Assembly (NCBI GenBank): GCA_963978545.1 | Contig: OZ021732.1 | Span: forward strand, 33,076,123-33,140,122 | Length of the DNA: 64,000 bases | Source of the DNA: Linyphia triangularis | Taxonomy: Eukaryota > Arthropoda > Arachnida > Araneae > Linyphiidae | Reading direction: 5' to 3' | In this document: one piece after another, positions 3,101-61,194 of the stretch | Position numbering within the stretch: position 1 is the stretch's first letter | Layout of the letters: each line of letters starts with the position of its first letter | Position numbers and translations under genes: made by a program | Notes under the pieces: generated by a model | The model's input: the letters and a program-made list of their open reading frames with translations, nothing else | What the model was told of the DNA's origin: nothing | The model's database searches: none

Positions 3101-6100
3101 TTAAACAAGAAAAAATACTTAATAGTAGTTAGAAAAGGACAGTCCTGAGCCATGGCGGGATGCGGGATGGTATGGTATGGGGGCGTGACCGGAAGGGGGC
3201 GTGTCCGGATATGACGTCACCGGAAGTCACGTGCCCGGAAGTGGAGTGGAGTTGTTTCCCTCCTGCTGCTGTTTTAGTTTCATTATAAGCTGTTTGTGTA
3301 TGACGTCACAGTGGGAATGACGTCATAATGTGTTTTATATTAAAGTTTTGAGCGATGCAACACTTTTTAGTTTCGATTTACCTTTAAGATGGAGTTGAGT
3401 TGTTCTAGGACTGCTTGTAAATGAATAAGTTAGAGTGATAGGTTTTTATTGCGTGACGTCACAGTAGGTATGACGTCATAATGTGTTATATATCAAAGTT
3501 TAGAGCGATGGCAACACTTTTTAGTGTCGATTTACCTTTCAGACTGAGTTGAGTTGTTCTAGGGCTGCTTATAAATGAATAAGTTAGAGTGATAGGTATT
3601 TTTACTAATGACGTCACAGTGGGTATGGCGTCATTCTATGTTAAGATTTACGTTTTAAGTGGTGATAACATTGGATATATATCAAATTTAGTTTTCAGGT
3701 GTTGGCAACGAGTTCTGATCGGTCAGCTAAATGCTCGCTTGTGACTGATAAGTTTTAAACATGTGACCAAAAGTTAACTCCTGATTGACTGTTTGGTTTT
3801 CTAGCGAGTTACTTACATATCCTTTAATCAAGTTAAAATACATGCAACAAAGTTACACAAATAAAAATGTTAAATTTGAAAAGTTAATAAAAGGAAGGCC
3901 ATTTGCTAAGGGTCTAAAGAACCCTAACCCCGAGCTACACGTGACATTTCAATATTTTACCAAACAATTGTTAAAATATCGACTATCGGACGTTGCCTTC
4001 ATGGTAACTCATCTACCCACCCCCCTTCCCTAACCAATTTTGAATAAGTTAATTTGAAAGACTTTAGAAAATGTTAATTATTTTGAAGTTAAATTTTAAA
4101 AGTGAGGACCCACCTCCAGCCCGATACCTCTTTTAGGAAGAATTGGTACCGCCTCACTCCACCCTATCAAAAAAAAAAAAAACTTATTCCAAAGAACGTA
4201 TATTTCCTTGAAATATGAGGTCACTAACTAACCATCCAATAATATCTTTTAAGAAGACATCATTACCTTAAATCCTAAACAATTTTAAATTTTAAAAAAT
4301 CTGAAAAGAAGACTTGTGAGAACGTATATTTCTCTCATGAATTAAATTTAATGATCACATACAAAATCCTGAAAAAAAAAAATTAACGTTAAATAAGTTT
4401 TTAAAAATTTAGTTAAAGTAATATTTTAGTTAAATTAAGGCTTAAAGAGATAAAAAAAAAAATTTAAGGATTAAATGAATGATTTAAGGAATTTTGAAGT
4501 GACCATAGGCATAGCTGGTTATGCCATCTTCCAGCAGATACCGCTTGTCGTCATAGGCCGACAAGGCTCTCTTGGTTTGTTGGAGTGAGAAGATGTTTAA
4601 AAATCCACTTACCGAATAATCGAAACGAAATCTGCGAAGCTAAAATAACTGTGAATAACTACACAAGTACGAACAAAATCGCGATGAGAAAAAAAACACG
4701 AAGTATTAAACACGTCTTTCACACTCAGGTATCTAAGTAGAAATGGCGAGACGGCAACCGGTAGCGTCTATATATGAGGGGTGATCACGTGACTTCACCG
4801 ACCAATCAGGTTTCACGGTAGAGGGTGCTACTGACTATCGACCCGTCAGAAGGGAGGGGAGCGAGACTAGGGATGTTTCAACACGCTTCAACGCGTTTGC
4901 GAGTGGAGTTGTTGTGTAACGATCTTGCTTGAAACAGTTAAAGTGATAGATAATTTGTTCGTGACGTCATAGTGTAGCGAATGGGTTTTTAGCGTAGACA
5001 GTTGTTGCAATTGGAGTAATTATGAAATTTATTAAATATAAAGATAATATTTAGTAATAATTATCAGATTTTATAATTATTATAAAAAATAAACTTATAA
5101 AAAAAAAAGTGAACGTGAAAATTTACTTTACGAATAAAAATCATGTCTTTAAAAAGTGTACGAATATCACTAAATAAGAGAAAAAAGTAACATACTTAAA
5201 CTCTATAAAATAAATAACTTTAACATTAACGTAAAAAATTTACTTTTCACATAAAAATCACTTTAAAATGAGTAAAAATATCGCTAAATAAGAGAAAAAA
5301 AGTAACTTACTTAAAATTTCTAAGATAAATATTTAACCTTTACTCGAAAATTCCCTTCATATATAAAAATCACGACTTTAAAATATGACATGCAAGAGAA
5401 AAGTAACGTACTTAAACTTTCTACGACAAATAACTTTAACATTAACGTAACATTTTACTTTACACATAAAAATCCCGACTTTAAAATATGTAGAAATATC
5501 GCTAAATAAAAGAAGAAAAAAAGTAACATACTTAAACTTTGTACGACAAATAACTTTGACATTAACGTAAAAAATGTTCTTCACATATAAAAATCACGAC
5601 TTTAAAATAAAACATGCAAGAGAAAAGTAACGTACTTAAACTTTCTACGACAAATAACTTTAACATTAACGTAAAATTTTACTTTACACATAAAAATCCC
5701 GACTTTAAAATCTGTAGAAATATCGCTAAATAAAAGAAGAAAAAAAATTAACACACTTAAACTTTCTACGACAAATAACTTTAACATTAACGCAAAAATT
5801 TACTTTACATATAAAAATCACGACTTTAAAATGTGACGTGTAAGAAGAATTAGCATACTTAAAATTTCTACGACAAATAATTCAAACATTGCCATTCATG
5901 TCTTTAAAATGTATAATGACAACTCTAACTTTTAGAAAAAAGAAACACTAAAAATTTACAAGGCAAAGAATTTAAAATTGAACGTGAAAATTAACTTCAC
6001 ATGTACAATCATACTCTTATATCAACGATAAATAAGATAAAAAAGAAGCTCTAAAAATTTATAAGGCAAATAATTTAAATAATACGCGAAAATTTACCAC

Positions 6101-9100
6101 ACATATAAAAATTATGTCTCTCAAATGTGTAAGAATAACGCTAAATTAGAGAAAAAGAAATACTAAAAATTTATAAGGTAAGGAATTGAAACAATATGCG
6201 AAAATTTATTTCACGCATAAAATTTTTATCTTTAAAATGTGTAAGAATAATGCTAAATTAGAGAAGAAAAAAAAATAACATACTTAAACTTTCTTCGACA
6301 ACAATTTAAACAATACGCGACATTTTCATACACAATTATTTTCTTAGGTTAATGTTAAATAATGGGAAGTTTAACAGAATAAAAATTTCAAAGATAAAGA
6401 ATTTTAACCTTTACACGAAAATTTACCTCACAAAAATATCATATCCTTAAACTTTAACGTGACAATTTACTCTTCATATACAATTAAACTCTTAGGTTAA
6501 TGTTAAATAAGAAAAAAAAATAATATACTTAAAATTTCTAAGATAAATATAACGTAAAAATTTCGTATCATGTGTTTAAAATGTAACATATAAGAGAAAA
6601 AAAACTAACATACTTGAACTTTCTATAGCAAAGAATTTAAGCATTAGCGTAAAAATTCACTTTACATATAAAATTCACATCTTTAAATGGGAAGATAAGC
6701 AGGTGACGGTAATTAGCCAATCAGGGTAGCGGTAGGTGATACGCCATTCGCAGGCATTTTTAGATCGGAGGATGAGTCACGCTAAAACTTGATGGAACAG
6801 GTCGGGAGATTTGTACAGCAAGAACAACAGCATCGACGCGCAAGCAGCGGGTGATGCTGTGATGTGTCAGCAGGTCTTTGAGATTATCGTTTTCCTACTT
6901 TGCCGTTTTCATAATGAAATGTTTGTGAAAACTTGGAATGAATAAAGTGGATTTCAAAGACATATTAGTAAGTGAAGGTAGAATTCGCATGGACTTTCTT
7001 CCAAAAAGTATGATTCACTTGGAGAATTTAAGATCATTTCTACTTGAAAACTTTTCTATTATTTAAAACATTGAATATTGTTCAAACTCAGTGGGATTAT
7101 ATGCTACAATACGGGTAAAACTTAACAAAATTGTTACATAGAAGAAAAATAGTAAGAGATTTAAAATAAATATTAGTTATAGATACTCCAAAGAAAAAAT
7201 TTCACCTCTACTTTTCAATCGGAAAATCAATACAAGTTGGAAATTTATGTTACTTCAAGAAAGACTTAGACAATTTACTTTGTAATAATATACGTTAAGG
7301 TGTCATATTAACTCGTGCAATAAATGCTGACTAAGGATTATTTTACTTATCAATCTAAGAAAGGTGAGTAGTTAGAAAATAGGGCTCCTGGGCCAGGGCG
7401 GTATGCGGTATGGTATGGTATGGTATGGTATGGTATGGTATGGTATGGTATGGGGGCGTGACCGGAAGGGGGCGTGACCGGATATGACGTCACAGGAAGT
7501 GACATCACAGGATATGCCATCACCGGAAGTCACGTGACCGGAAGTGGGGTTGAGTTGTTCCCCTCCTGCTGTTGTTTTAGTTTCATTATAAGCTGTTTGT
7601 GTATGACGTCACAGTAGGTATGACGTCATAATGTGTTTGATATTAAAGTTTTGAGTGGTGGCAACACTTTTTTAGTTTCGGTTTATCTAGCAGATGGAGC
7701 TGAGTTGTTCTAGGACTGCTTCTAAACGAATAAGTTAGAGTGATAGGCTTTTATTGAGTGACGTCACAGTAGGTATGACGTCATAATTTGTTTTATATCA
7801 AAGTTTTGAGCGGTGGCAACACTTTTTAGTGTCGATTTACCTTTCAGACTGAGTTGAGTTGTTCTAGGGCTGCTTATAAATGAATAAGTTAGAGTGATAG
7901 GTATTTTTACTAATGACGTCACAGTGGGTATGGCGTCATTCTATGTTAAGATTTACGTTTTAAGTGGTGATAACATTGGATATATATCAAATTTAGTTTT
8001 CAGGTGTTGGCAACGAGTTCTGATCGGTCAGCTAAATGCTCGCTTGTGACTGATAAGTTTTAAACATGTGACCAAAAGTTAACTCCTGATTGACTGTTTG
8101 GTTTTCTAGCGAGTTACTTACATATCCTTTAGCCAAGTTAAAATACCTGCAACAAAGTTACACAAAAAAAAATGTTAAATTTGAAAAGTTAATAAAAGAA
8201 GGCCATTTGCTAAGGGTCTAAAGAACCCTAACCCCGAGCTACACGTGACATTTCAATATTTTACCAAACAATTGTTAAAATATCGACTATCGGACGTTGC
8301 CTTCATGGTAACTCATCTACCCACCCCCCTTCCCTAACTAATTTTGAATAAGTTAAGACTTTAGAATTACAATTAATAAATTTTGAAAAATTATTTATTA
8401 AAGGTGAGGACCCACCTCCAGCCCGATACCTCTTTTAGGAAGAAATGGTACCGCCTCACTCCCCCCTATCAACAAAAAAAAACTTATTTCAAAGAACGTA
8501 TATTTCCTTGAAATATGAGGTCACTAACCAACCATCCAATAATATCTTTTAAGAAGACATCATTACCTTAAATCCTAAACAATTTTAAATTTTAAAAAAT
8601 CTGAAAAGAAGACTTGTGAGAACGTATATTTCTCTCATGAATTAAATTTAATGATCACATACAAAATCCTGAAAAAAAATTAACGTTAAATAAGTTTTTA
8701 AAAAATTAGTTAAAGTAATATTTTAGTTAAATTAAGGCTTAAAGAGATAAAAAAAAAAAATTAAGGATTAAATGAATGATTTAAGGAATTTTGAAGTGAC
8801 CATAGGCATAGCTGGTTATGCCATCTTCCAGCAGATACCGCTTGTCGTCATAGGCCGACAAGGCTCTCTTGGTTTGTTGGAGTGAGAAGATGTTTAAAAA
8901 TTCACTTACCGAATAATCGAAACGAAATCTGCGAAGCTAAAATAACTGTGAATAACTACACAAGTACGAACAAAATCGCGATGAGAAAAAAAACACGAAG
9001 TATTAAACACGTCTTTCACACTCAGGTATCTAAGTAGAAATGGCGAGACGGCAACCGGTAGCGTCTATATATGAAGGGTGATCACGTGACTTCACCGACC

Positions 9101-12100
9101 AATCAGGTTTCACGGTAGAGGGTGCTACTGACTATCGACCCGTCAGACGGGAGGGGAGCGAGACTAGGGATGTTTCAACACGCTTCAACGCGTTTGCGAG
9201 TTGAGTTGTTGTGTAACGATCTTGCTTGAAACAGTTAAAGTGATAGATAATTTGTTCGTGACGTCATAGTATAGCGAATGGGTTTTTAGCGTAGACAGTT
9301 GTTTCAATTGGAGTAATTATGAAATTTATTAAATATAAAGATAATATTTAGTAATAATTATCAGATTTTATTATTATTATTATAAAAAATAAACTTATAA
9401 AAAAAGTGAACGTGAAAATTTACTTTACGAATAAAAATCATGTCTTTAAAATGTGTACGAATATCACTAAATAAGAGAAAAAAGTAACATACTTAAACTC
9501 TTTAAGATAAATAACTTTAACACTAACGTAAAAAATTTACTTTTCACATAAAAATCACTTTAAAATGAGTAAAAATATCGGTAAATAAAAGAAAAAAAAA
9601 GTAACTTACTTAAAATTTCTAAGATAAATATTTAACCTTTACTCGAAAATTCCCTTCATATATAAAAATCACGACTTTAAAATATGACATGCAAGAGAAA
9701 AGTAACGTACTTAAACTTTCTACGACAAATAACTTTAACATTAACGTAACATTTTACTTTACACATAAAAATCCCGACTTTAAAATATGTAGAAATATCG
9801 CTAAATAAAAGAAGAAAAAAAAAGTAACATACTTAAACTTTGTACGACAAATAACTTTGACATTAACGTAAAAAATTTTCTTCACATATAAAAATCACGA
9901 CTTTAAAATGTGACGTGTAAGAAGAATTAGCATACTTAAAATTTCTACGACAAATAAATTTAACCTTTACCCGAAAATTTACTATATACATAAAAATCAT
10001 GTCTTTAAAATATGTAAAAATATTGCTAAATAAAAGAAAAAAAAACTAACATACTTAAACTTTGCACGACAAATAACTTTAGCATTAACGTAAAAATTTA
10101 CTTCACATATAAAAATCACGACATTAAAATGTGACATGTAAGAAGAATTAGCATACTTAAAATTTCTACGATAAATAATTCTAACATTTGAGTGAAAATT
10201 TACTACATATATAAAAATCATGTATTTCAAATGTGTAAGAATAACGCTAAATTAGAGAAAAAGAAATACTAAAAATTTATAAGGTAAGGAATTGAAACAA
10301 TATGCGAAAATTTATTTCACGCATAAAATTTTTATCTTTAAAATGTGTAAGAATAATGCTAAATTAGAGAAGAAAAAAAATAACATACTTAAACTTTCTT
10401 CGACAACAATTTAAACAATACGCGACATTTTCATACACAATTATTTTCTTAGGTTAATGTTAAATAATGGGAAATTTAACAGAATAAAAATTTCAAAGAT
10501 AAAGAATTTTAACCTTTACACGAAAATTTACCTCACAAAAATATCATATCCTTAAACTTTAACGTGACAATTTACTCTTCATATACAATTAAACTCTTAG
10601 GTTAATGTTAAATAAGAAAAAAAAATAATATACTTAAAATTTCTAAGATAAACATAACGTAAAAATTTCGTATCAAGTGTTTAAAATGTAACATATAAGA
10701 GAAAAAAAACTAACATACTTGAACTTTCTATAGCAAAGAATTTAAGCATTAGCGTAAAAATTCACTTTACATATAAAATTCACATCTTTAAATGGGAAGA
10801 TAAGCAGGTGACGGTAATTAGCCAATCAGGGTAGCGGTAGGTGATACGCCATTCGCCGACATTTTTAGATCGGAGGATGAGTCACGCTAAAACTTGTTGG
10901 AACAGGTCGGGAGATTTGTACAGCAAGAACAACAGCATCGACGCGCAAGCAGCGGGTGATGCTGTGATGTGTCAGCAGGTCTTTGAGATTATCGTTTTCC
11001 TACTTTGCCGTTTTCATAATGAAATGTTTGTGAAAACTTGGAATGAATAAAGTGGATTTCAAAGACATATTAGTAAGTGAAGGTAGAATTCGCATGGACT
11101 TTCTTCCAAAAAGTATGATTCACTTGGAGAATTTAAGATCATTTCTACTTGAAAACTTTTCTATTATTTAAAACATTGAATATTGTTCAAACTCAGTGGG
11201 ATTATATGCTACAATACGGGTAAAACTTAACAAAATTGTTACATAGAAGAAAAATAGTAAGAGATTTAAAATAAATATTAGTTATAGATACTCCAAAGAA
11301 AAAATTTCACTTCAACTTTTCAATCGGAAAATCAATACAAGTTGGAAATTTATGTTACTTCAAGAAAGACTAGGACAATTTACTTTGTAATAATATACGT
11401 TAAGGTGTCGTATTAACTCGTGCAATACATGCTGACTAAGGTTTATTTTACTTGAAAGGTGAATTGGGGGAAAATATTAAATAAATTGTAGATATTAAAT
11501 ACATTGTAGATATGCATTCAAGTTTTGAAAATCACCTGCAAGACTTTTAAAACATCTTAAGATAAATTGAAAGAAACTTTTTATACTCTGAAAGGAAATC
11601 ACAAGTAATTTAGTTAACTTTTTTCATGGTAACACTCATATTCAACGACATGTTTTTAAAATTTAACCTTCTTTACATGATAATAGTTATAAATTTTTTC
11701 AATCTCAGATGCGATATACTATTATTTCTAACGTATATGTTACGAATTGTGTAAAGTTTTTAAAAGAGTATATGCAAATCACCAATCAGAAACATAAAAA
11801 TCTAACATCAATCAAACACACTAAAATAATAAGATATTTTCCTTAGTGGAAATAGTTAACTACTCATGTGATGGAATGTACTTAGAAAATTTAAATACTG
11901 AAAAAAGTTTGCTAGGCAAACTTAAAGAATATATATTTTTTTTTCTTGTGAAAAACTAGCATAAATTTGAGAAATATAGAGTTTGATACTACGTAAAATT
12001 GAACATCATCTGGACAAACTAAATTATACATGAATTTTTTTTTTATTTGAGAGGTGCTGACAATATATCATTAATACAGAGATTTTTAACTTCCACCCAT

Positions 12101-13127
12101 AATTTCTAAATAACTTATACATAAATTTCAGAAAACTGAAACGGAATGTGTTTTACAAGACGCTTATTTTGTAAGATGAATATTCAATATTAATATAACT
12201 GAGCAAAGTTCATTACGGAAAAAACTTGTAAAAGATACTTATATTTTGAAAATAGTTTGAAATATCCTTTTAAATTTATGAATGCTCGCTTTCGAAAGAC
12301 ACAAATAAAACTGATATTACACATGATAATTAACACATGCATAACATTAATCAAACAAAGTGGAATTTTTATTGCTTGTGACCGATAACTTTTCAGTGAA
12401 GTAGAACTTACATAGGAAATTTGTGCAAACTTTTTCAACTTTTAAACCAAGTATTATGTAAAATTATAAATTACGATAGGAAATAGCACACTTCAGAATC
12501 GGAACAAGTCTTCCAGTTAAGCTAAATTTATTTCTCAAGGAATTGAAAGCATACCAGACAAGTCCTTATCATTTCGCATCTTTTCTCATATTGCAAAAAG
12601 ACATACTTTGTAAAAGATCGTCGTTGCACTTAACAAAAATCAGTAAAAATAAATGTATTTTCTATGGCAAAGATAAAACTTCACAACTTAATTACTGAAA
12701 ATTAGCTAAGTTGCATATGGTTTATTCACATAACTCGCATATGCTTCGAATGTTGAAATATATTTGTCAGTTGAAATCAAACTAATCGAAAATAAATGCT
12801 ACCTACATTTTCAAGTCGGAAATTACTATTAAATAAACTTTACATGTAAAACATTGTCATGTTAAAAAGAAAAATCTACAAAAATGTAAATGATAATTTT
12901 ACTGTTGGTACATAAATGATGAATAATTTATGATTTTATTCTAGGCAAACGTTTTATTGTCTAACAGAGAACTTAAACTTTAGCAGAAAAATAAAAAAAT
13001 ACAATTTTTATATCCTATCATGCTTGTCTAAAATTGAATTTATTAGCTGTTGTAATAGATTTTTATTGTCCAAATTTCTATAGTTTTTCTTCCCGGTGCA
13101 ATAAAATTAAGTTCATGTGTAATGATT

Positions 13128-13172
<45 letters not shown>

Positions 13173-16100
13173 AATCTTATAAATTTAATGAAATTATTAT
13201 GACCTAAGAGATTGAGTAAACTGAATAAATCAATGATGTAAATTTAAACAGTGACTTGAACTGATACATACTATAACTGTAAAGAAGTATGACAAAGTGA
13301 TAGATGAAGTAAAATTAGAAGTTGAATGAAATGTGTTGAAAAAAGTTGAAGACGACAAGAAATTCGTAATTGAGAATTATCATTGACTTATATTAACTTC
13401 GTTTTTCTTGCTTATGACAAGAAAATACACTCTTTCTTATTAAGAACCAACTTGATATCTTATCATAGAATGACAATGATGAAATATCTATACATTAAAA
13501 AAAAAAATACCAAACTTAGACATAGCAAATTTCTTGAAATTCATGTATAATGTGAGAAGTTTTACTGGAAATATAGAAGATACAACATTGAAAGATGTGA
13601 ATGTTTCGAAGTACTTTATCAGAAATAAAAAAAAAAATGCGCTGAGATTCGCTATAAAAAATTTTAGGAGAAAGTTTAAACAAAATTTAAAATCAAACAT
13701 GCTTTTAAATGGGAACACATATATTAAAACTATAGCACATTAAACAATTTATATTACGTCATCTCAGTTGTATCAAACTGAATAACATGAAAAACAACCA
13801 CAAACTGAATAAACATGAAAATTATCAATATATGTGGAAAAGTTTCCTTTTTTCACATATAAAAAAAATAACACATTGACGTACGTTAAGATCACGAAAC
13901 ATGCATAATCATATACCGATAAGAGCAACCAATGTTGCGGGGAGATATTCACATGATGGCCAATATCCCATGAATAAATTGATTGATTGAATTTCTAATG
14001 CTAATTCCAATAGTATTCCACGTAACTTCAACTTCATATGGTACACTATAGATATATTTATTTTTCAAATATATTGACTTTCGAAAAATCATCCTTCAAT
14101 ATAAGAATGATCATAGTAAGAATAAAAGAAAAGATACTAAGCATTGATTTAAAGTGTATTTATTTCAACTTAGCAACAAATCATATGCTTGAAACGAAAA
14201 TTGCTTCGAACCAAAGTATAACCATCCAATTTCATTGATTCCTACAAGGACATTTTTCTCATCTAGTAATTGAATTTTTTTTTTCTCATACACATTATAA
14301 GTGATGTCCAATCAGGTGTAGAATAGTTGAAGATATCCGACCTCTTTCTAAATATTAATAAGTCACTGTTGAAAAACTTATAAAAATTTCAATTTACACT
14401 TAAAGTTTTTTTTTTATATATATTTCAAAGAATTTTTTCAAATCAATATGTATATTTAAATATTGAAACTTATTCACTTCAATAAATGTATGTTTAAGTT
14501 ATAAAACTCTTCGTATGTATTGAAAAATTGTAACTTTTCGTCTTCTTCGTATAAATCGATAACTTATACACTAGTTCTTCATCAATTAATCTTCTAAGTA
14601 AATCTTTCAAAGCTAAAAACATACTTATAGCTTTGCATTTGTAACAAGTTAAATTGTACATGTTTCATGTGAAAGTTACAAAATTTCAAATATTTTCATG
14701 GAAAACATATAAAATTTTAATTTCACATGAAACATGTACAATTTAACATGTTACAAATGCAAAGCTATAAGTATGTTTTTAGCTTTGAAAGATTTACTTA
14801 GAAGATTAATCGATGAAGAACTAGTGTATAAGTTATCGATTTATACGAAGAAGACGAAAAGTTACAATTTTTCAATACATACGAAGAGTTTTATAACTTA
14901 AACATACATTTATTGAAGTGAATAAGTTTCAATATTTAAATATACATATTGATTTGAAAAAATTCTTTGAAATATATATAAAAAAAAACTTTAAGTGTAA
15001 ATTGAAATTTTTATAAGTTTTTCAACAGTGACTTATTAATATTTAGAAAGAGGTCGGATATCTTCAACTATTCTACACCTGATTGGACATCACTTATAAT
15101 GTGTATGAGAAAAAAAAAATTCAATTACTAGATGAGAAAAATGTCCTTGTAGGAATCAATGAAATTGGATGGTTATACTTTGGTTCGAAGCAATTTTCGT
15201 TTCAAGCATATGATTTGTTGCTAAGTTGAAATAAATACACTTTAAATCAATGCTTAGTATCTTTTCTTTTATTCTTACTATGATCATTCTTATATTGAAG
15301 GATGATTTTTCGAAAGTCAATATATTTGAAAAATAAATATATCTATAGTGTACCATATGAAGTTGAAGTTACGTGGAATACTATTGGAATTAGCATTAGA
15401 AATTCAATCAATCAATTTATTCATGGGATATTGGCCATCATGTGAATATCTCCCCGCAACATTGGTTGCTCTTATCGGTATATGATTATGCATGTTTCGT
15501 GATCTTAACGTACGTCAATGTGTTATTTTTTTTATATGTGAAAAAAGGAAACTTTTCCACATATATTGATAATTTTCATGTTTATTCAGTTTGTGGTTGT
15601 TTTTCATGTTATTCAGTTTGATACAACTGAGATGACGTAATATAAATTGTTTAATGTGCTATAGTTTTAATATATGTGTTCCCATTTAAAAGCATGTTTG
15701 ATTTTAAATTTTGTTTAAACTTTCTCCTAAAATTTTTTATAGCGAATCTCAGCGCATTTTTTTTTTTATTTCTGATAAAGTACTTCGAAACATTCACATC
15801 TTTCAATGTTGTATCTTCTATATTTCCAGTAAAACTTCTCACATTATACATGAATTTCAAGAAATTTGCTATGTCTAAGTTTGGTATTTTTTTTTTTTAA
15901 TGTATAGATATTTCATCATTGTCATTCTATGATAAGATATCAAGTTGGTTCTTAATAAGAAAGAGTGTATTTTCTTGTCATAAGCAAGAAAAACGAAGTT
16001 AATATAAGTCAATGATAATTCTCAATTACGAATTTCTTGTCGTCTTCAACTTTTTTCAACACATTTCATTCAACTTCTAATTTTACTTCATCTATCACTT

Positions 16101-19100
16101 TGTCATACTTCTTTACAGTTATAGTATGTATCAGTTCAAGTCACTGTTTAAATTTACATCATTGATTTATTCAGTTTACTCAATCTCTTAGGTCATAATA
16201 ATTTCATTAAATTTATAAGATTCATAAAAAAAAAAAAATAAAAAAAAAAATAAAAAAAAAAAAAAAAAAAACCCAATCATTACACATGAACTTAATTTTA
16301 TTGCACCGGGAAGAAAAACTATAGAAATTTGGACAATAAAAATCTATTACAACAGCTAATAAATTCAATTTTCGACAAGCATGATAGGATATAAAAATTG
16401 TATTTTTTTATTTTTCTGCTAAAGTTTAAGTTCTCTGTTAGACAATAAAACGTTTGCCTAGAATAAAATCATAAATTATTCATCATTTATGTACCAACAG
16501 TAAAATTATCATTTACATTTTTGTAGATTTTTCTTTTTAACATGACAATGTTTTACATGTAAAGTTTATTTAATAGTAATTTCCGACTTGAAAATGTAGG
16601 TAGCATTTATTTTCGATTAGTTTGATTTCAACTGACAAATATATTTCAACATTCGAAGCATATGCGAGTTATGTGAATAAACCATATGCAACTTAGCTAA
16701 TTTTCAGTAATTAAGTTGTGAAGTTTTATCTTTGCCATAGAAAATACATTTATTTTTACTGATTTTTGTTAAGTGCAACGACGATCTTTTACAAAGTATG
16801 TCTTTTTGCAACATGAGAAAAGATGCGAAATGATAAGGACTTGTCTGGTATGCTTTCAATTCCTTGAGAAATAAATTTAGCTTAACTAGAAGACTTGTTC
16901 CGATTCTGAAGTGTGCTATTTCCTATCGTAATTTATAATTTTACATAATACTTGGTTTAAAAGTTGAAAAGTTTGCACAAATTTCCTATGTAAGTTCTAC
17001 TTCACTGAAAAGTTATCGGTCACAAGCAATAAAAATTCCACTTTGTTTGATTAATGTTATGCATGTGTTAATTATCATGTGTAATATCAGTTTTATTTGT
17101 GTCTTTCGAAAGCGAGCATTCATAAATTTAAAAGGATATTTCAAACTATTTTCAAAATATAAGTATCTTTTACAAGTTTTTTCCGTAATGAACTTTGCTC
17201 AGTTATATTAATATTGAATATTCATCTTACAAAATAAGCGTCTTGTAAAACACATTCCGTTTCAGTTTTCTGAAATTTATGTATAAGTTATTTAGAAATT
17301 ATGGGTGGAAGTTAAAAATCTCTGTATTAATGATATATTGTCAGCACCTCTCAAATAAAAAAAAATTCATGTATAATTTAGTTTGTCCAGATGATGTTCA
17401 ATTTTACGTAGTATCAAACTCTATATTTCTCAAATTTATGCTAGTTTTTCACAAGAAAAAAAATATATATTCTTTAAGTTTGCCTAGCAAACTTTTTTCA
17501 GTATTTAAATTTTCTAAGTACATTCCATCACATGAGTAGTTAACTATTTCCACTAAGGAAAATATCTTATTATTTTAGTGTGTTTGATTGATGTTAGATT
17601 TTTATGTTTCTGATTGGTGATTTGCATATACTCTTTTAAAAACTTTACACAATTCGTAACATATACGTTAGAAATAATAGTATATCGCATCTGAGATTGA
17701 AAAAATTTATAACTATTATCATGTAAAGAAGGTTAAATTTTAAAAACATGTCGTTGAATATGAGTGTTACCATGAAAAAAGTTAACTAAATTACTTGTGA
17801 TTTCCTTTCAGAGTATAAAAAGTTTCTTTCAATTTATCTTAAGATGTTTTAAAAGTCTTGCAGGTGATTTTCAAAACTTGAATGCATATCTACAATGTAT
17901 TTAATATCTACAATTTATTTAATATTTTCCCCCAATTCACCTTTCAAGTAAAATAAACCTTAGTCAGCATGTATTGCACGAGTTAATACGACACCTTAAC
18001 GTATATTATTACAAAGTAAATTGTCTAAGTCTTTCTTGAAGTAACATAAATTTCCAACTTGTATTGATTTTCCGATTGAAAAGTAGAGGTGAAATTTTTT
18101 CTTTGGAGTATCTATAACTAATATTTATTTTAAATCTCTTACTATTTTTCTTCTATGTAACAATTTTGTTAAGTTTTACCCGTATTGTAGCATATAATCC
18201 CACTGAGTTTGAACAATATTCAATGTTTTAAATAATAGAAAAGTTTTCAAGTAGAAATGATCTTAAATTCTCCAAGTGAATCATACTTTTTGGAAGAAAG
18301 TCCATGCGAATTCTACCTTCACTTACTAATATGTCTTTGAAATCCACTTTATTCATTCCAAGTTTTCACAAACATTTCATTATGAAAACGGCAAAGTAGG
18401 AAAACGATAATCTCAAAGACCTGCTGACACATCACAGCATCACCCGCTGCTTGCGCGTCGATGCTGTTGTTCTTGCTGTACAAATCTCCCGACCTGTTCC
18501 AACAAGTTTTAGCGTGACTCATCCTCCGATCTAAAAATGCCGGCGAATGGCGTATCACCTACCGCTACCCTGATTGGCTAATTACCGTCACCTGCTTATC
18601 TTCCCATTTAAAGATGTGAATTTTATATGTAAAGTGAATTTTTACGCTAATGCTTAAATTCTTTGCTATAGAAAGTTCAAGTATGTTAGTTTTTTTCTCT
18701 TATATGTTACATTTTAAACACTTGATACGAAATTTGTACGTTATGTTTATCTTAGAAATTTTAAGTATATTATTTTTTTTTTCTTATTTAACATTAACCT
18801 AAGAGTTTAATTGTATATGAAGAGTAAATTGTCACGTTAAAGTTTAAGGATATGATATTTTTGTGAGGTAAATTTTCGTGTAAAGGTTAAAATTCTTTAT
18901 CTTTGAAATTTTTATTCTGTTAAATTTCCCATTATTTAACATTAACCTAAGAAAATAATTGTGTATGAAAATGTCGCGTATTGTTTAAATTGTTGTCGAA
19001 GAAAGTTTAAGTATGTTATTTTTTTTCTTCTCTAATTTAGCATTATTCTTACACATTTTAAAGATAAAAATTTTATGCGTGAAATAAATTTTCGCATATT

Positions 19101-22100
19101 GTTTCAATTCCTTACCTTATAAATTTTTAGTATTTCTTTTTCTCTAATTTAGCGTTATTCTTACACATTTGAAATACATGATTTTTATATATGTAGTAAA
19201 TTTTCACTCAAATGTTAGAATTATTTATCGTAGAAATTTTAAGTATGCTAATTCTTCTTACATGTCACATTTTAATGTCGTGATTTTTATATGTGAAGTA
19301 AATTTTTACGTTAATGCTAAAGTTATTTGTCGTGCAAAGTTTAAGTATGTTAGTTTTTTTTCTTTTATTTAGCAATATTTTTACATATTTTAAAGACATG
19401 ATTTTTATGTATATAGTAAATTTTCGGGTAAAGGTTAAATTTATTTGTCGTAGAAATTTTAAGTATGCTAATTCTTCTTACACGTCACATTTTAAAGTCG
19501 TGATTTTTATATGTGAAGAAAATTTTTTACGTTAATGTCAAAATTATTTGTCGTACAAAGTTTAAGTATGTTACTTTTTTTTTTCTTCTTTTATTTAGCG
19601 ATATTTCTACATATTTTAAAGTTGGGATTTTTATGTGTAAAGTAAAATGTTACGTTAATGTTAAAGTTATTTGTCGTAGAAAGTTTAAGTACGTTACTTT
19701 TCTCTTGCATGTCATATTTTAAAGTCGTGATTTTTATATATGAAGGGAATTTTCGAGTAAAGGTTAAATATTTATCTTAGAAATTTTAAGTAAGTTACTT
19801 TTTTTCTCTTATTTAGCGATATTTTTACTCATTTTAAAGTGATTTTTATGTGAAAAGTAAATTTTTTACGTTAATGTTAAAGTTATTTATTTTATAGAGT
19901 TTAAGTATGTTACTTTTTTCTCTTATTTAGTGATATTCGTACACATTTTAAAGACATGATTTTTATTCGTAAAGTAAATTTTCACGTTCACTTTTTTTTT
20001 TATAAGTTTATTTTTTATAATAATAATAATAAAATCTGATAATTATTACTAAATATTATCTTTATATTTAATAAATTTCATAATTACTCCAATTGCAACA
20101 ACTGTCTACGCTAAAAACCCATTCGCTACACTATGACGTCACGAACAAATTATCTATCACTTTAACTGTTTCAAGCAAGATCGTTACACAACAACTCCAC
20201 TCGCAAACGCGTTGAAGCGTGTTGAAACATCCCTAGTCTCGCTCCCCTCCCTTCTGACGGGTCGATAGTCAGTAGCACCCTCTACCGTGAAACCTGATTG
20301 GTCGGTGAAGTCACGTGATCACCCCTCATATATAGACGCTACCGGTTGCCGTCTCGCCATTTCTACTTAGATACCTGAGTGTGAAAGACGTGTTTAATAC
20401 TTCGTGTTTTTTTTCTCATCGCGATTTTGTTCGTACTTGTGTAGTTATTCACAGTTATTTTAGCTTCGCTGATTTCGTTTCGATTATTCGGTAAGTGGAT
20501 TTTTAAACATCTTCTCACTCCAACAAACCAAGAGAGCCTTGTCGGCCTATGACGACAAGCGGTATCTGCTGGAAGATGGCATAACCAGCTATGCCTATGG
20601 TCACTTCAAAATTCCTTAAATCATTCATTTAATCCTTAAATTTTTTTTTTTATCTCTTTAAGCCTTAATTTAACTAAAATATTACTTTAACTAAATTTTT
20701 AAAAACTTATTTAACGTTAATTTTTTTTTTCAGGATTTTGTATGTGATCATTAAATTTAATTCATGAGAGAAATATACGTTCTCACAAGTCTTCTTTTCA
20801 GATTTTTTAAAATTTAAAATTGTTTAGGATTTAAGGTAATGATGTCTTCTTAAAAGATATTATTGGATGGTTAGTTAGTGACCTCATATTTCAAGGAAAT
20901 ATACGTTCTTTGGAATAAGTTTTTTTTTTTTTTGATAGGGTGGAGTGAGGCGGTACCAATTCTTCCTAAAAGAGGTATCGGGCTGGAGGTGGGTCCTCAC
21001 TTTTAAAATTTAACTTCAAAATAATTAACATTTTCTAAAGTCTTTCAAATTAACTTATTCAAAATTGGTTAGGGAAGGGGGGTGGGTAGATGAGTTACCA
21101 TGAAGGCAACGTCCGATAGTCGATATTTTAACAATTGTTTGGTAAAATATTGAAATGTCACGTGTAGCTCGGGGTTAGGGTTCTTTAGACCCTTAGCAAA
21201 TGGCCTTCCTTTTATTAACTTTTCAAATTTAACATTTTTATTTGTGTAACTTTGTTGCATGTATTTTAACTTGATTAAAGGATATGTAAGTAACTCGCTA
21301 GAAAACCAAACAGTCAATCAGGAGTTAACTTTTGGTCACATGTTTAAAACTTATCAGTCACAAGCGAGCATTTAGCTGACCGATCAGAACTCGTTGCCAA
21401 CACCTGAAAACTAAATTTGATATATATCCAATGTTATCACCACTTAAAACGTAAATCTTAACATAGAATGACGCCATACCCACTGTGACGTCATTAGTAA
21501 AAATACCTATCACTCTAACTTATTCATTTATAAGCAGCCCTAGAACAACTCAACTCAGTCTGAAAGGTAAATCGACACTAAAAAGTGTTGCCATCGCTCT
21601 AAACTTTGATATATAACACATTATGACGTCATACCTACTGTGACGTCACGCAATAAAAACCTATCACTCTAACTTATTCATTTACAAGCAGTCCTAGAAC
21701 AACTCAACTCCATCTTAAAGGTAAATCGAAACTAAAAAGTGTTGCATCGCTCAAAACTTTAATATAAAACACATTATGACGTCATTCCCACTGTGACGTC
21801 ATACACAAACAGCTTATAATGAAACTAAAACAGCAGCAGGAGGGAAACAACTCCACTCCACTTCCGGGCACGTGACTTCCGGTGACGTCATATCCGGACA
21901 CGCCCCCTTCCGGTCACGCCCCCATACCATACCATCCCGCATCCCGCCATGGCTCAGGACTGTCCTTTTCTAACTACTCTTAATATTGAGTATAAAGAAA
22001 GTAAGAAAAACTTATCGGTCATTTTCAAGCAACCCCGGCTGAAATATAGAATAGATTTTAACAGAAGACTACTTTGGGGTCAGTGTGGGGGGAGGGGACG

Positions 22101-43160: not shown

Positions 43161-43182
43161 AATTTTGTTTGTTTATATTAAA

Positions 43183-46522: not shown

Positions 46523-47540
46523 AGTAGTTAGAAAATAGGGCTCCGAAGCCATGGCGGAGCAGCGGAGCAGGTATGGTATGGGGGCGTGATCGGATATGAC
46601 GTCACAGGAAGTGACATCACCGGATATGACGTCACCGGAAGTCATGTGACCGGAAGTGGAGTGGAGTTGTTTCCCTCCTGCTGCTGTTTTAGTTTCGGTT
46701 TCGTTGTAAGCTGTTTGTGTATGACGTCACAGTGGGTATGACGTCATAATGTGTTTTATATCAATGTTTTGAGCGTTGGTCAACACTTTTTAGTTTCGAT
46801 TTTACCTTTAAGATGGGGTTGAGTTGTTCTAGGGCTGCTTGTAAACGAATAAGTTAGAGTGATAGGCTTTTATTGCGTGACGTCACAGTGGGTATGACGT
46901 CATAATGTGTATTATATCAAAGTTTTGAGCGGTGGCAACACTTTTTAGTTTCGATTTATCTTTAAGATGGAGTTGAGTTGTTCTATGACTGCTTCTAAAC
47001 GAATAAGTTAGAGTGTTAGGCTTTTATTGAGTGACGTCACAGTGGGTATGACGTCATAATGTGTTTTATATCAAAGTTTTGAGCGGTGGCAATACTTTCT
47101 AGTGTCGATTTACCTTTAGGATGGAGTTGAGTTGTTCTAGGACTGCTTGTAAACGAATAAGTTAGAATGATAGGTTTTTATTGCGTGACGTCACAGTAGG
47201 TATGACGTCATAATGTGTTTTATATCAAAGTTTAGAGCGATGGCAACACTTTCTAGTGTCGATTTACCTTTAGGATGGAGTTGAGTTGTTCTAGGACTGC
47301 TTGTAAACGAATAAGTTAGAATGATAGGTTGTTATTGCGTGACGTCACAGTAGGTATGACGTCATAATGTGTTTTATATCAAAGTTTTGAGCAGTGGCAA
47401 CACTTTTTAGTGTCGATTTACCTTTCAGACGGAGTTGAGTTGTTCTAGGGCTGCTTCTTAGCGTATAAGTTAGAGTGATAGGCTTTTTTTTTTTTTTACT
47501 AGTGACGTCACAGTGGGTATGATGTCATTATATGTTAAAA
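46523..47540 (+). repeat. Left terminal repeat with CRE-like tandem array
   Basis: By my count there are 13 exact TGACGTCA sites (46597, 46627, 46722, 46739, 46878, 46895, 47032, 47049, 47186, 47203, 47340, 47357, 47503). Most are paired 17 bp apart in units of about 154 bp. Each unit also has 'gagttgttctaggactgctt' and 'gtggcaacactttttag'. The right terminal repeat (61195-61901) has the inverted equivalent with fewer units. Confidence 0.88.
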
Positions 47541-47749
47541 TTTACGTTTTAAGTGATGATAACACTGGATATATACCAAATTTAGTTTTCAGGTGTTGGC
47601 AACGAGTTCTGATTGGTCAGCTAAATGCTCGCTTGTGACTGATAAGTTTTAAACATGTGACCAAAAGTTAACTTCTGATTGACTGTTTGGTTTTCTAGCG
47701 AGTTACTTACATATCCTTTAATCAAGTTAAAATACCTGCAACGAAGTTA

Positions 47750-47782
<33 letters not shown>

Positions 47783-48454
47783 TTACATTTGAAAAGTTAA
47801 TAAAAGTGAAGGCCATTTGCTAAGGGTCAAAAAGAACCCTAACCCCGAGCTACACGTGACATTTCAATATTTTACCAAACAATTGTTAAAATATCGACTA
47901 TCGGACGTTGCCTTCATGGTAACTCATCTACCCACCCCCCTTCCCTAACTAATTTTGAATAAATTAAGACTTTAGAATTACAATTAATAAATTTTGAAAA
48001 ATTATTTATTAAAGGTGAGGACCCACCTCCAGCCCGATACCTCTTTTAGGAAGAAATGGTACCGCCTCACTCCACCCTAACAAAAAAAAAAATCTTATTC
48101 CAAAGAACGTATATTTCTTTGAAACTTGAGGTCACTAATCAACCATCCGATGATATCCTTTAAGAAGATATCTTCACCTCTTAACAATTTTAAAGTTTTA
48201 GTCTAAAAGATTAATGTTGGACACAAACTATTTCTAGAATAGAGTTACATTAAAAATTAAATTTAAGAGTGTCCAGTTTTTTGAAGAAGACTTGGGGGAA
48301 CGTATATTTCCCAAAATTAAATTTAATGGTCACTAATAAAATCCTGAAAATATACTAATTTTAGTTTTTATAAAAATTAAGTTAATGTAATATTTTAGTA
48401 AAAATAATGACTATAGTTAATGAATTGCGAAAAATTAAGTTAGAAGAATTAAAT
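47541..48454. other. Subterminal block and PolB 3' region
   Basis: Noncoding DNA shared with the palindrome copies, including 'ggacccacctccagcccgat' near 48020. A minus-strand AATAAA (48005-48010) could end the PolB transcript. A 30-A run lies near 47750. Confidence 0.55.
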
Positions 48455-51400
48455 TTAAGGAATTTTGTAGTGACCATACGCATAACTAGTTATACCATCC
48501 TCCAACAGGTATCGCTTGTCATCAAATGCCGAGAGCGCTCGCTTTCTTTGCTGGATGGAGAAAATGTGATGTTTTTCACTACCGATCCGATGCTGAACCA
48601 CAGACGAAGGTTGTCGATTGAGAAGACAGTCTCTATAGGTCTGATGTTTTAGCTGTCTTTGAGCTGCTCTTGCGATCCCCTTGGCCGTTTGTTTCTCACC
48701 ACACTCGCTTAAAATGGAATACATTTTGGAACGAAGCCCTATAAACTCCAAAGCAGATTTTCCGTTAAGTTCATCCTTAAAGTAGCCGATCTTCTTCTTG
48801 TTAGACATATCGTGTAGGAGATGATCTGGTGGATAGTCAGAAAAGTCAAAAAATCCCTTTAACTGATGTAAGTCAGCAGTCAGATCTGGGGTGGTGAGTC
48901 CATAAGTGAGTGAATCTGTGTCGGTGAATAGTAGGCGGGCATTACTTCCATACTTCTTCATGATGACATTATAGTGGAAATCATACATTAAAACCTTGCT
49001 CAGTTCTAAGATGGCGAAACCAGCATAAATGGGTCTATTAAGTGTGAGACTCTTCACTTTTCTTTGTACTGCTGCCAAGCTGTTATCAAACTCAGTGAAG
49101 GCATGGAAGGCAGGAGACGCGACCAGTTTCTTGGCTTTATGTGGGTTGTTCACCAACTGAACATCCACTCTATTCCTCAGATTTTCCATTGTTTTCCCGA
49201 ACACCGCATTGTTGAGAAGTTTGAAGAAATCTTTTTCAAACGATGTTTTGGCCAGTTTTCTCTGCTCCGTATTAAATGCTATGTAGTCCTTCAGCCAAGG
49301 TTGTTGGTAGAATTTTAGAATTCTATGAACTTTAGTTAGTTTCAGTCCCAAGGAAAGATATAGCTTCAGATTACGATAGTGTATAACATAATTCTTCTTT
49401 GACTGAAGATTCGGAACGAGTTTCTCGCTGGAAGAAGCTGGCTTCATTTGCATTTCTTCCAAAATCTCGAGGGCGGTAGGAGACAGCATATTTGGCTTTA
49501 TGGTGAAGCGTTCGGGAGCCAGAGGATAATCGTTATGGAGATCGTGGAGTTCAGCAGGATAGTCGAGATCCACTTCTAGGATGAAGCCCTCATCTGCATC
49601 ATCTGCTTGGTCCAAGATGGTTTTAGCAGAGATGTTTTCAGGGTCCACCCACTGAAAATCACCAACAGGTAAGTATTGAGACATGGCCCAACCTGAAAGA
49701 AAAATCCAATTAAATCATTCAATATTAACATAGAAGTTAAATAAAAAATGACAGTTTTAAAGTAAATTCCTGCTTACCATAGAGGTTATTGGCATCCAGG
49801 TACAATATATGTTTCTTCTCCTCAGCAACATTATATTCAGGACAGCCTGGATGGTTTGCCTGGCTATGACGATGGGTGATGACGGAGACTCCTCCCCGAA
49901 TACCCTTCTCTATGAAGAGGTGCATGTCGATGTCGGTGAATAAATCCAAACCGACATCTGACATCTTGAGAGCGGCTTGCCACGCTAACCCCGGAGACGT
50001 CATCATGTGGGCGGCGTCTAGTTGGTAAAAGTCCAGAGTTAGGCGGCGGAAATTCTCGAATACGTCTGCGAGGAGGAGCACATCCGTCTTTACGTACAGG
50101 TCGTGATATTCGCCAAGGTCTTTGATGCCGAAAGCTTCCCAAACAGCTTGAGCATGGCCATAATCTGCATCGGTGATGGAGGAGTTTGTCAGAGTACTGT
50201 AGAAGGCTTGCTGAGGTGGCAGAGATGTTTGTTGAAATTTAGTGAACGAGTCCATGTACTCATAAGGGTACACTCCCTTCTTCAGCAAGAGATCTAAGGA
50301 AAAAATAAAAAATTAAATGATATTGTTAAGAGAACATTTATATAATATTAACATTGACTATATTACGTACCATGGTTAGATGCGATAGAACTCTTCAAAA
50401 TGTGAAACTTGTCTCTCTCCAGATTATCGACAAGTTTCTGAAGCGATGCATTCAGAAACTGGAGACTGTCAATAAACTGGAGAGTCACCGGGATCTTGTC
50501 AAGTTTCTTAGTGATGGAGAAGGAGATGTATTTTTCCATCGTTGTAGGGATGACTCCAATGTCATGATCAGCCACTTTCCCTAGCCCCTGCATGATCAAA
50601 TGCGCATCATAATTCTTCAGGTTGTGGAAGACGCATTGAATCATTTTCCGCAACCTGAAGGCAAGGTTACATTCATTGTGGAGCACTTGGCGGAACTGAC
50701 CGGTCAAGTGATCGTGGTCGTTCACCCGATCAGTTCCTAGTCGGCCTTTGCAGAGGCCACAGTGCGTTGCAGCATTGATAGCATGCTGGTCTTGGGGAGT
50801 GAGTTTCATCGGGACAATGGTGGTCAGCTTCACCGCCAGCTCGTCCTTTTCATCAATGATGCTCTTGATGAAATGGTCCACTGCATCTTCTCCCCTGTAG
50901 ACAGAGATGGGTTTGGTCGGCTTCCCATCAGGACCTATAATGACATAAGCATATCCGCAGGGGACGTGGGTAGCTATCTTCATAGTGCTGGAGGGGGTGG
51001 TGTCATCCAACTTCTCTACCAAGGCCTCAAAATCTGCGTAGATCACGTAGGGGATCTTCTGCTGGAATTTGTACTGACTAAATTTCAGTACACAGTCCTT
51101 TGGAGTCGGCATCTTGATGTGTTGGGGTGAGTGCTCGTTACAGTACGAGACATGTGCTTTGAGAGTCTCCTCCTTGGCAAAACGATGCAGACAAGAATAA
51201 CAGTAGAAGCTCGTGCCATGATGTTTAGTGAGGTTGGTGAGAAGCCTGGACATACTCTTAATTAAGCAGTAGTGCTGCCTCTCTCCTTCTATGATGTAAA
51301 GTAGGTTGATAACCTCAGGATCCTCCCTCTTAGAGATATATAGGGGTAATATCTCATCATCTTCATACCCGTAGATGTTTATTCTCAGATTATTCAGTGC

Positions 51401-53803: not shown

Positions 53804-54281
53804 TATAAATAACTGAAATTGAAAAAATATATATAAATATCGAAAGAAAAAAACATACATTTTCAATACAAGTTGGAAATAATTTTTATGTAATAGTTGA
53901 ATCGACTACTTTAACATGATGCGATTGTTAAGCCTAACAAATGCACGCGGTACTTAAGCCTAACAATGCACGCGATACTTAATCTAGCAAATGTATTTGA
54001 TAGTCCATTTCAATATATAAATTTAACACACGATAAATAACTTCAGTTAAAATAATTTGTCTGCTAATATTAAATAATATACATACATCTTAAATTTACT
54101 GAACGGATAACTTAAACCTTTAACATGTAATACAGAAAAATATTTGAATGAACGCGATTCTTTACCCTAATACATATAGTAAAATAATTTAACATTTAAA
54201 TATACATGTTACTTAAAACATTTGAATACACATAATACTTAAAAGATACTAACATTTCACAAATAATAAAAATTCACTTAC

Positions 54282-54480
54282 CGAATAATTCAGATGAAAT
54301 CAGCAAAAAGCTATAATAGCAGCAAATACAATAAGCAAGCACGATAAGCAAATACTAAGCAAACACGATAAACGTCTTTCGCACTCAGGAATCTAAGTAG
54401 AAATGGAGAGACGGCAACCGGTAGCGTATATATATGGGGGGGTGATCACGTGACTTCACCGACCAATCAGATTTCACGGT
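54282..54480 (-). promoter_or_regulatory. PolB promoter and 5' noncoding exon
   Basis: On the minus strand: inverted CCAAT (near 54465), CACGTG (near 54447), TATATATAT (54427-54435), a predicted start near 54400, and a noncoding exon ending at donor GTAAGT (last exon base 54282). The acceptor at 53813-53815 joins this exon just upstream of the PolB ATG. The layout is conserved in all three palindrome copies. Confidence 0.7.
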
Positions 54481-56273: not shown

Positions 56274-56310
56274 ATACTACTAGCACATGTTGCAAGACTC
56301 ATTTGCTATC

Positions 56311-59259: not shown

Positions 59260-59283
59260 AGAAAGTATTTAAACAGTAGCACT

Positions 59284-59922: not shown

Positions 59923-59964
59923 TATAAAAGTGAATGACTTTGAAGATAAGTATCATTTAGCAAG

Positions 59965-60955: not shown

Positions 60956-61194
60956 TTCAATAAAGTGATATTGCTTTAACATTTTTTTTTTATTATTATT
61001 TCACATAAGAAAATCACACACACATATTTCCATTGAATAATTTTTATTTACAATTTCAAATAATCTTTCAAAGCACCATAAACTGTATAGCCAATGAAAT
61101 CACGTGACACATTTCAACCAATGAGAAGATAGTATTTGGTGATGTGTCTAAAACCGACCAATCGCAAGCAAGTATTTTGCCGATCTCTAACACA

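What the first reader, a model, noticed from the sequence alone, without database searches (positions are those of the whole stretch)
3124..21978. 18.9-kb near-perfect palindrome that is an integrated Polinton derivative
The element has Polinton termini at both ends, a perfect 6-bp duplication (CTTAAT) and arms of about 7.3 kb around a 46-bp spacer. Non-autonomous Polintons are usually described as simple deletions. A giant palindrome that integrated as a unit is unusual and suggests a distinct class of derivative.
Basis: partly seen in the sequence, partly recalled or inferred. Interest (0 to 1): 0.9.

Follow-up and report, generated by a model that had tools for sequence, protein, structure and literature searches.

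The report
Mobile giant palindromic Polinton family
The finding is one copy of a mobile DNA family, present in hundreds of copies in this genome, that consists of two stripped-down virus-like Polinton transposons joined back to back as a mirror image about 14.6 kb long, and whose two halves change together as if each were copied or corrected from the other.

Summary
The palindrome is real, but it is 14.6 kb (window 7367-21978), not 18.9 kb. The remaining 4.24 kb (3124-7366) is the outer part of a second copy, broken exactly where the palindrome's own terminus begins. Polinton termini and the CTTAAT duplication are confirmed. A gene-bearing Polinton of the same terminus family lies at 46523-61901.

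The window's genome (1.35 Gb) holds 533 exact matches to a centre junction. I probed the ends of 24 other loci. Both ends of a simple copy were found in 18: 13.8-15.7 kb long, a perfect 6-bp duplication in 18 of 18, all different. One sits inside another copy. This is an amplified non-autonomous Polinton family, not a one-off and not an assembly foldback.

In 10 copies compared, the two ends of one copy are nearly identical (3 substitutions in 3509 sites) while ends of different copies differ by a median of 8.6%. Near the centre of 7 copies, 22 sites vary between copies yet agree on both arms of every copy; shared asymmetries lie only within 28 bp of the spacer.

I infer copying by Polinton enzymes in trans, with the strand folding into a hairpin that keeps the arms alike; that step is not shown.

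The parts
3118..3123 (.). left copy of the 6-bp target duplication CTTAAT
3124..7366 (+). X: outer 4.24 kb of an arm of a second palindromic copy, truncated at ...AAAGGTG where the next terminus begins
3124..3135 (+). outer left terminus AGTAGTTAGAAA
7361..7366 (+). AAGGTG in X; the intact arm L continues AATTGGGG after the same AAGGTG, so this is the likely target site of the inner insertion (the other copy of this duplication is missing)
   Evidence: read by eye
7367..14674 (+). L: left arm of the 14.6-kb palindrome, with its own complete terminus at 7367
14675..14720 (.). 46-bp centre (spacer), a decayed inverted repeat; the same centre is found in the other copies read
14721..21978 (-). 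R: right arm; inner part pairs with L (0.31% different), outer ~2.4 kb pairs with X (0.21% different)
21967..21978 (-). outer right terminus AGTAGTTAGAAA
21979..21984 (.). right copy of the 6-bp target duplication CTTAAT
7464..8912 (+). arm block matching Polinton A left end (TIR plus the last ~40 codons of PolB), A 46576-48585; mirrored at 20488-21978 (A 46523-48585)
8895..9469 (+). arm block matching A 54267-54826 (between PolB and integrase); the PolB body is deleted between this and the previous block; mirrored at 19928-20505
9415..10272 (+). tandem subrepeats of about 103-224 bp inside the arm; counterparts at 5179-5880 and 19131-19982
13241..13755 (+). broken remnant of the last Polinton gene (A 60462-60990, about 65% DNA identity); mirrored at 15639-16154
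46523..61901 (.). Polinton A: same terminus family, target duplication TTCGCC, PolB split over three ORFs, RVE+chromo integrase, adenovirus-like protease, packaging ATPase; candidate for the kind of element that supplies enzymes in trans

Best explanation
The thing is one (compound) copy of an amplified, gene-less Polinton family whose unit is a 13.8-15.7 kb palindrome. Origin (inferred): a Polinton lost most of its genes and its right terminal repeat, and the broken end folded back and was copied. This produced two mirror-image halves joined at the former right end, with a working left terminus at each end. Spread (termini and duplications shown; enzyme source inferred): integrase and protein-primed polymerase of gene-bearing relatives of the 46523-61901 type copy and insert it in trans, leaving 6-bp duplications. 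Arm identity (pattern shown, cause inferred): in strand-displacement replication the displaced single strand of a palindrome can snap into a 7.3-kb hairpin. Differences between arms are corrected or copied there, except next to the turn, so both arms change together and a terminus acquired at one end appears at both. This locus (inferred): a palindromic copy inserted into an arm of an older palindromic copy, after which recombination between the two same-direction right arms (or a collapse in the assembly) removed an estimated 10 kb, leaving X-L-R inside the older copy's CTTAAT.
For: Termini and duplications; 18 of 18 simple copies with both ends found carry perfect, all different 6-bp duplications. 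Copy number: 533 exact matches to a 35-letter centre/right-arm junction, control 0; 323 exact 31-mers of the spacer, control 0; 40 of 40 scored centre hits, window's own included, matched in both orientations (825 first-look candidates, 785 not scored). Same centre in 8 of 8 loci read, window's own included, and a diverged form in 3 of 3 further places. Colinear blocks with Polinton A, weakest 4e-35, against 9e-15 for the best reversed decoy. Symmetry: within-copy ends 3 of 3509 sites in 10 copies against a between-copy median of 8.6% in 45 pairs; 22 both-arm-symmetric sites, 0 of 999 shuffled pairings as many (mean 2.0, maximum 18), 8 of the 22 shared by the same three copies. Compound locus; a nested copy elsewhere at C1:76264190-76278372. 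Enzyme source: 117 of 117 scored integrase matches cover at least 346 of 347 residues at 99-100% identity, 5 with a stop (3463 first-look candidates, the rest not scored).
Against: No replication intermediate, transcript or read was seen. Chromosomal gene conversion could also keep arms alike. Neither the palindrome's single-arm parent nor any intermediate was found. About 3.8 kb in the middle of each arm and 0.9 kb next to the centre match nothing in Polinton A. For other copies I read only the ends and, for 7 places, 3.6 kb at the centre, not whole arms. Of 24 probed loci, 6 did not give a simple two-ended copy: one compound, two with one end only, three with no end in the probed stretches. 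C14:92.97-92.995M is compound in another way, with two centres and no internal terminus. The one place scored in the whole-element search (C3:40.77M) was matched only from a terminus to about 0.7 kb past the centre, so it may lack most of its second arm or be cut by the tool. Arms of one copy are not always each other's closest relative: between copies the same-side difference can be as low as 4 or 6 sites, against 3-9 within copies. Three asymmetric sites persist within 28 bp of the spacer in 6 of 7 copies. The polymerase match of A is below Pfam's cut-off.
Confidence: 0.75

Rival explanations
1. Assembly or library foldback artefact: one arm read twice.
For: Arms are very alike, and foldback artefacts are a known source of palindromes (general knowledge). 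Raw reads were not available.
Against: Flanks on the two sides are different DNA sharing a 6-bp duplication; L and R outer parts differ at 83 of 2434 sites; X, L and R form a single-switch mosaic; 18 other two-ended copies with their own duplications; one centre shared by copies on many contigs.
Confidence: 0.02
2. The X-L-R unit formed outside the chromosome (the end of one palindrome joined into another), its two outer ends were made alike during replication, and it integrated once as an 18.9-kb unit with CTTAAT.
For: The outer ends X and R are alike to 0.21% and flanked by one perfect duplication; C14 also holds a compound unit inside one duplication, ATAGAT, with a left end one AGT short.
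Against: X ends exactly at AAGGTG before a complete terminus, as expected of an insertion into an existing arm; a nested copy with both duplication halves exists at C1:76.26M, so chromosomal nesting happens.
Confidence: 0.25
3. Arms are kept alike by ordinary gene conversion between inverted arms while sitting in the chromosome, not by a hairpin during replication.
For: Conversion between inverted repeats is well known, and recombination and conversion are proposed for the long terminal repeats of Galileo (PMC3573991, discussion). It would also make variants symmetric.
Against: 15 one-copy asymmetric sites against 22 symmetric suggest little correction since insertion. In 8 of the 22 symmetric sites the variant is shared by the same three copies, so symmetry preceded the copying of those three. 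Neither point excludes conversion in a source copy.
Confidence: 0.3
4. Palindromes arise again and again from a single-arm parent.
For: None found; single-arm parents were not searched for exhaustively.
Against: The same centre in 8 of 8 loci and a diverged version in 3 of 3 further places; a fold-back at an arbitrary point would give different centres.
Confidence: 0.03

Closest known systems
Polinton/Maverick transposons (polintoviruses)
   Same: Ends begin AGTAGT, as in the (AGT)2 end motif and perfect 6-bp duplications quoted for vertebrate Mavericks (PMC8097293, passages only); arm sequence colinear with Polinton A of the window. Gene set of Polintons from PMC4028283 (Findings, part 1).
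   Different: No genes of its own; the whole element is inverted repeat; two former right ends fused and the right terminal repeat lost.
Foldback-type elements and Galileo two-TIR copies
   Same: Almost nothing but terminal inverted repeat, internal tandem repeats in the arms, neighbouring sequence recruited into the repeats, chimeric copies (PMC3573991, sections 7 and 10).
   Different: Galileo is placed in the P superfamily and its repeats reach about 1.26 kb (same source); here the arms are about 7.3 kb, nearly six times longer, and the termini are Polinton's. That paper also says in one line that expansion of inverted repeats has been reported for Polintons, with three citations (seen) that I did not read.
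Adenovirus symmetric recombinants (SYREC) and palindromic derivatives of yeast linear plasmid pGKL1
   Same: Recalled, borne out by no call (the search found nothing on them): protein-primed linear genomes that gave palindromes carrying one viral end at both termini.
   Different: Recalled as laboratory or sporadic defective molecules; this is a chromosomally integrated family with hundreds of copies.
[quoted passage not shown]
   Same: A hairpin-capped linear duplex replicates into an inverted dimer that integrates (abstract of PMC4689423).
   Different: Integration there is by homologous recombination, without a 6-bp duplication of the integrase kind, and it is not a transposon.

Membership tests
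Polinton/Maverick superfamily (as non-autonomous member) | 6-bp target duplication | tested here: met
   CTTAAT here; 18 of 18 other simple copies with both ends found
Polinton/Maverick superfamily (as non-autonomous member) | Termini homologous to a gene-bearing Polinton | tested here: met
   First 12 bases identical to both ends of Polinton A in the window; TIR about 80-87% alike
Polinton/Maverick superfamily (as non-autonomous member) | Sequence derived from a Polinton | tested here: met
   Three colinear blocks incl. remnants of PolB 3' end and last gene; about 3.8 kb plus 0.9 kb per arm unmatched
Autonomous Polinton | PolB, integrase, protease, ATPase, capsid genes | tested here: not met
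   No ORF of 120 aa or more in 3124-21978; no Pfam family reaching its cut-off in 10 of the 15 stop-to-stop ORFs listed for the right arm (one sub-threshold DUF5745 match)
Foldback / two-TIR elements | Element made almost entirely of long inverted repeats with internal subrepeats | tested here: met
   Arms about 7.3 kb, spacer 46 bp, subrepeats
Foldback / two-TIR elements | Cut-and-paste transposase as mobiliser (recalled for the known ones) | not testable with these tools
   Mobiliser inferred from termini only; termini match Polintons
Defective palindromic replicon of the SYREC / pGKL1 kind | Exists and replicates as an extrachromosomal linear molecule with protein-bound ends | not testable with these tools
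   Needs DNA from the organism
Assembly foldback artefact | Arms identical, no independent flank signature | tested here: not met

The most novel reading that the evidence does not exclude
A satellite of Polinton viruses that exists as a self-complementary genome. It lost half its helper's sequence but doubled what remained, so its length (18 copies: 13.8-15.7 kb, mean 14.58 kb) stays close to that of the gene-bearing Polinton (15.38 kb), as if selected for packaging length. It replicates through a snapped-back hairpin in which one arm corrects the other, so every cycle rewrites both halves and both ends together.
Probability: 0.4. Interest if true: 0.92.

Novelty: new variant of a known kind. 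Interest (0 to 1): 0.8.

Why it matters
Whether Polintons live as virus-like linear episomes with protein-primed, strand-displacement replication is mostly inferred from their genes (my reading). A family that is one giant inverted repeat, with arms that change together except beside the turn, is a natural record of how those molecules replicate. It makes hairpin replication, end exchange and a packaging-length limit testable by counting and reading copies already in a chromosome-scale assembly. It also shows that inverted repeats of this size can persist in hundreds of copies, and it adds a giant foldback type to the known non-autonomous derivatives.

Tried and rejected
Rejected: one 18.9-kb palindrome. 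Rejected: the extra right-junction matches being the single-arm parent. Right-junction matches number 533 and left-junction matches 230, but 3 of 3 sampled places without a left match were palindromic at the centre with a diverged spacer (only about 60-70 bp beyond the spacer of the second arm was fetched there). Rejected: strict regeneration of the palindrome from one arm each cycle, because three asymmetries next to the spacer are shared by 6 of 7 copies. Led nowhere: 20 evenly spaced 10-kb stretches of contig 1 (20 kb each asked, 10 kb given) held no copy of A or of the palindrome; one weak integrase-like match there was not followed. Searches of viral contigs with integrase, 57476-58783 protein and ATPase gave 0 confirmed relatives; a terminus pattern gave one 147-kb viral contig, taken as chance and not examined. 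Rfam 0 matches at gathering score. The structure prediction of the probable capsid protein 57476-58783 was useless (mean pLDDT 32); no PDB match and no Pfam match. The whole-element query had 4554 first-look candidates but only 1 scored. A terminus pattern meant to give the length distribution of all elements did not complete, nor was a count of the loopless centre, so the packaging-length idea is untested.
Full report
1. The observation. Self-comparison of the window shows a large inverted repeat between 7437 and 21938 and a direct repeat of its outer part at 3164-7348. Reading the ends gives AGTAGTTAGAAA at 3124 and, reversed, at 21978, flanked by CTTAAT on both sides. The 12-mer occurs five times in the window, at 3124, 7367, 21978, 46523 and 61901; with one mismatch allowed there are still only those five, against 0.87 expected. 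Four are the outer ends of two elements. The one at 7367 is unexpected and decisive: a complete terminus lies inside the reported element.

2. Anatomy. Aligning X (3124-7366), L (7367 inward) and R (reversed from 21978) gives a clean mosaic. In the outer ~2.4 kb X and R differ at 5 of 2439 sites while L and R differ at 83 of 2434. Further in, L and R differ at 15 of 4807 while X and R differ at 65 of 1603 (14 of these in the last 62 sites, where X ends and the alignment is poor). One switch point leaves 7 of 137 informative sites unexplained; the best of 20000 shuffles left 38. X stops at ...AAAGGTG, immediately before the terminus at 7367; the intact arm L continues AATTGGGG after the same letters (read by eye). 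So the unit is the 14.6-kb palindrome 7367-21978, and X is the stump of another copy. The simplest history is insertion of one palindrome into the arm of another, then loss of the part between the two same-direction right arms, either in the chromosome or by collapse in the assembly.

3. Relation to Polintons. The window also holds a Polinton at 46523-61901 with duplication TTCGCC, an integrase with RVE and chromo domains, an adenovirus-type protease and a packaging ATPase, each above Pfam's cut-off, and a DNA polymerase B match below it. Its polymerase is split over three ORFs and is described only. The capsid genes are assigned by position and size only (compare PMC4028283, Findings part 1); neither Pfam, PDB nor the structure prediction supported them. 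The arm of the palindrome is colinear with this element in three blocks: left end plus the end of the polymerase gene, a piece between polymerase and integrase, and a remnant of the last gene (weakest block 4e-35, best reversed decoy 9e-15). Since the last-gene remnant lies nearest the centre and no right terminal repeat is present, the palindrome looks like two deleted Polintons joined at their right ends. About 3.8 kb in the middle of each arm and about 0.9 kb next to the centre match nothing in Polinton A at that level.

4. It is a family. The window lies in a 1.35-Gb genome of 369 contigs. A 601-bp centre query had 825 first-look candidates; 40 were scored (window's own included) and all 40 matched at 98-100% in one orientation and 95-96% in the other. 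Exact pattern counts are 323 for 31 letters of the spacer, 533 for the spacer/right-arm junction and 230 for the left-arm/spacer junction, with 0 for reversed controls (only the first 100 places of each are listed, and a few matches are local repeats, so matches are not exactly copies). Three of three sampled places that lacked the left pattern were a diverged version of the same centre. I probed the ends of 24 loci: 14 chosen from the 39 other places, and 10 of the 23 spacer matches listed on contig 1 (isolated ones, in list order). Eighteen gave both ends of a simple copy (11 of 14 and 7 of 10), with a perfect 6-bp duplication in 18 of 18, all different, and lengths of 13801-15696 bp, mean 14582. 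One more (C14) is compound with two centres inside one duplication, its left end one AGT unit short. Two gave one end, and three gave none in the stretches probed. One of the 18 (C1:76264190-76278372) sits inside the arm of another copy, and one (C1:45789718) has TG instead of AG at its left end. Twenty evenly spaced 10-kb stretches of contig 1 held none; if 533 full copies make up roughly 0.6% of the genome, that miss is not surprising.

5. The arms change together. Ends of one copy differ at 3 of 3509 aligned sites in 10 copies (window included; the other 9 two-ended copies were not compared, and one of the 10, C1, also has 60 gapped columns). Ends of different copies differ by a median of 8.6% (45 pairs, 3-20%; pairs with C13 rest on short alignments). 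The ends of the ordinary Polinton A differ at 41 of 487. In the 1.65 kb on each side of the centre of 7 copies (the eighth, L030, was dropped as identical to L029; sites with a gap in any arm were dropped), 22 sites vary between copies but agree on the two arms of every copy, 15 are asymmetric in one copy, and 3 are asymmetric in 6 of 7. All three shared ones lie 7, 8 and 28 bp from the spacer. Re-pairing arms at random gave a mean of 2.0 symmetric sites, at most 18, and never 22 (0 of 999). Arms of one copy are not always the closest pair: same-side arms of related copies can differ at only 4-6 sites while arms of one copy differ at 3-9, which fits private changes since insertion on top of symmetric older ones. 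The spacer itself is a decayed inverted repeat and is perfectly self-complementary over 40 bp in one copy (L089).

6. How it most likely works. Shown: termini, duplications, copy number, common centre, arm symmetry at the ends and near the centre. Inferred: replication and integration in trans by Polinton enzymes, for which many integrase genes exist (117 of 117 scored matches at 99-100% identity, 5 with a stop). Also inferred: hairpin formation by the displaced strand with correction of arm differences, which explains why shared asymmetry is found only near the turn and why terminus variants appear at both ends. Ordinary gene conversion in the chromosome remains a real rival.

7. What is known. 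Galileo copies made only of terminal repeats, with recruited internal sequence and tandem repeats, are a smaller-scale precedent in another superfamily (PMC3573991: abstract, sections 7 and 10, reference list). That paper mentions in one line that inverted-repeat expansion has been reported for Polintons, citing work I did not read. The yeast ODIRA work shows that hairpin-capped molecules can replicate into inverted dimers (PMC4689423, abstract only). Adenovirus symmetric recombinants and pGKL1 palindromes are recalled from memory. Three literature searches were answered: 4 papers; 81 papers, 30 listed; 14 papers, none relevant. Their titles and abstract beginnings showed no paper on palindromic Polintons, and passages from PMC6431247, PMC12721341, PMC2836005, PMC6035795 and PMC8097293 gave none. 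The library covers only open-licence papers and other searches failed, so prior description is possible.

Noticed in passing
46523-61901: A Polinton whose own two ends differ at 41 of 487 sites, far more than the ends of any of the 10 palindromic copies compared; its polymerase is split over three ORFs while integrase, protease and ATPase ORFs are open.
   Followed up: partly
L049, L050, L057, L058, L029, L030 (C14:92.97-92.995 Mb): A 25-kb compound copy with two identical centres (3606 bp compared) 10.5 kb apart inside one duplication (ATAGAT), arms fused at truncated points with no internal terminus.
   Followed up: partly
C1:76264190-76278372 (L085, L086): A palindromic copy inserted into the arm of another palindromic copy with an intact duplication GACGAT.
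   Followed up: partly
C2:69112276-69112534 (listing): The centre/right-arm junction occurs three times at 112-bp spacing, a local amplification of the palindrome's centre.
   Followed up: no
C3:40770880-40778736: A place matched from a terminus to about 0.7 kb past the centre only; either a copy lacking most of its second arm or a stretch cut by the tool.
   Followed up: no
L089: A copy in which the centre is a perfect 40-bp palindrome, perhaps closer to the founding centre.
   Followed up: partly
8895-8912: The polymerase deletion junction in the arm carries an imperfect microhomology of about 11 bp (TTCACT-ACCGA) between the two ends as seen in Polinton A (read by eye).
   Followed up: partly
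25932-26616: A separate 0.7-kb near-palindrome, 78% self-complementary; a 95% identical copy lies on contig 1 (L022), so it is a dispersed repeat.
   Followed up: partly
43182-44152 and 45069-46292: Tandem-repeat blocks beside the Polinton that recur elsewhere in the genome (L018, L021, L022); 32492-33117 is related to the second.
   Followed up: no
23468-23938: ORF with a match to DUF4371 just below the Pfam cut-off, possibly from a transposon.
   Followed up: no
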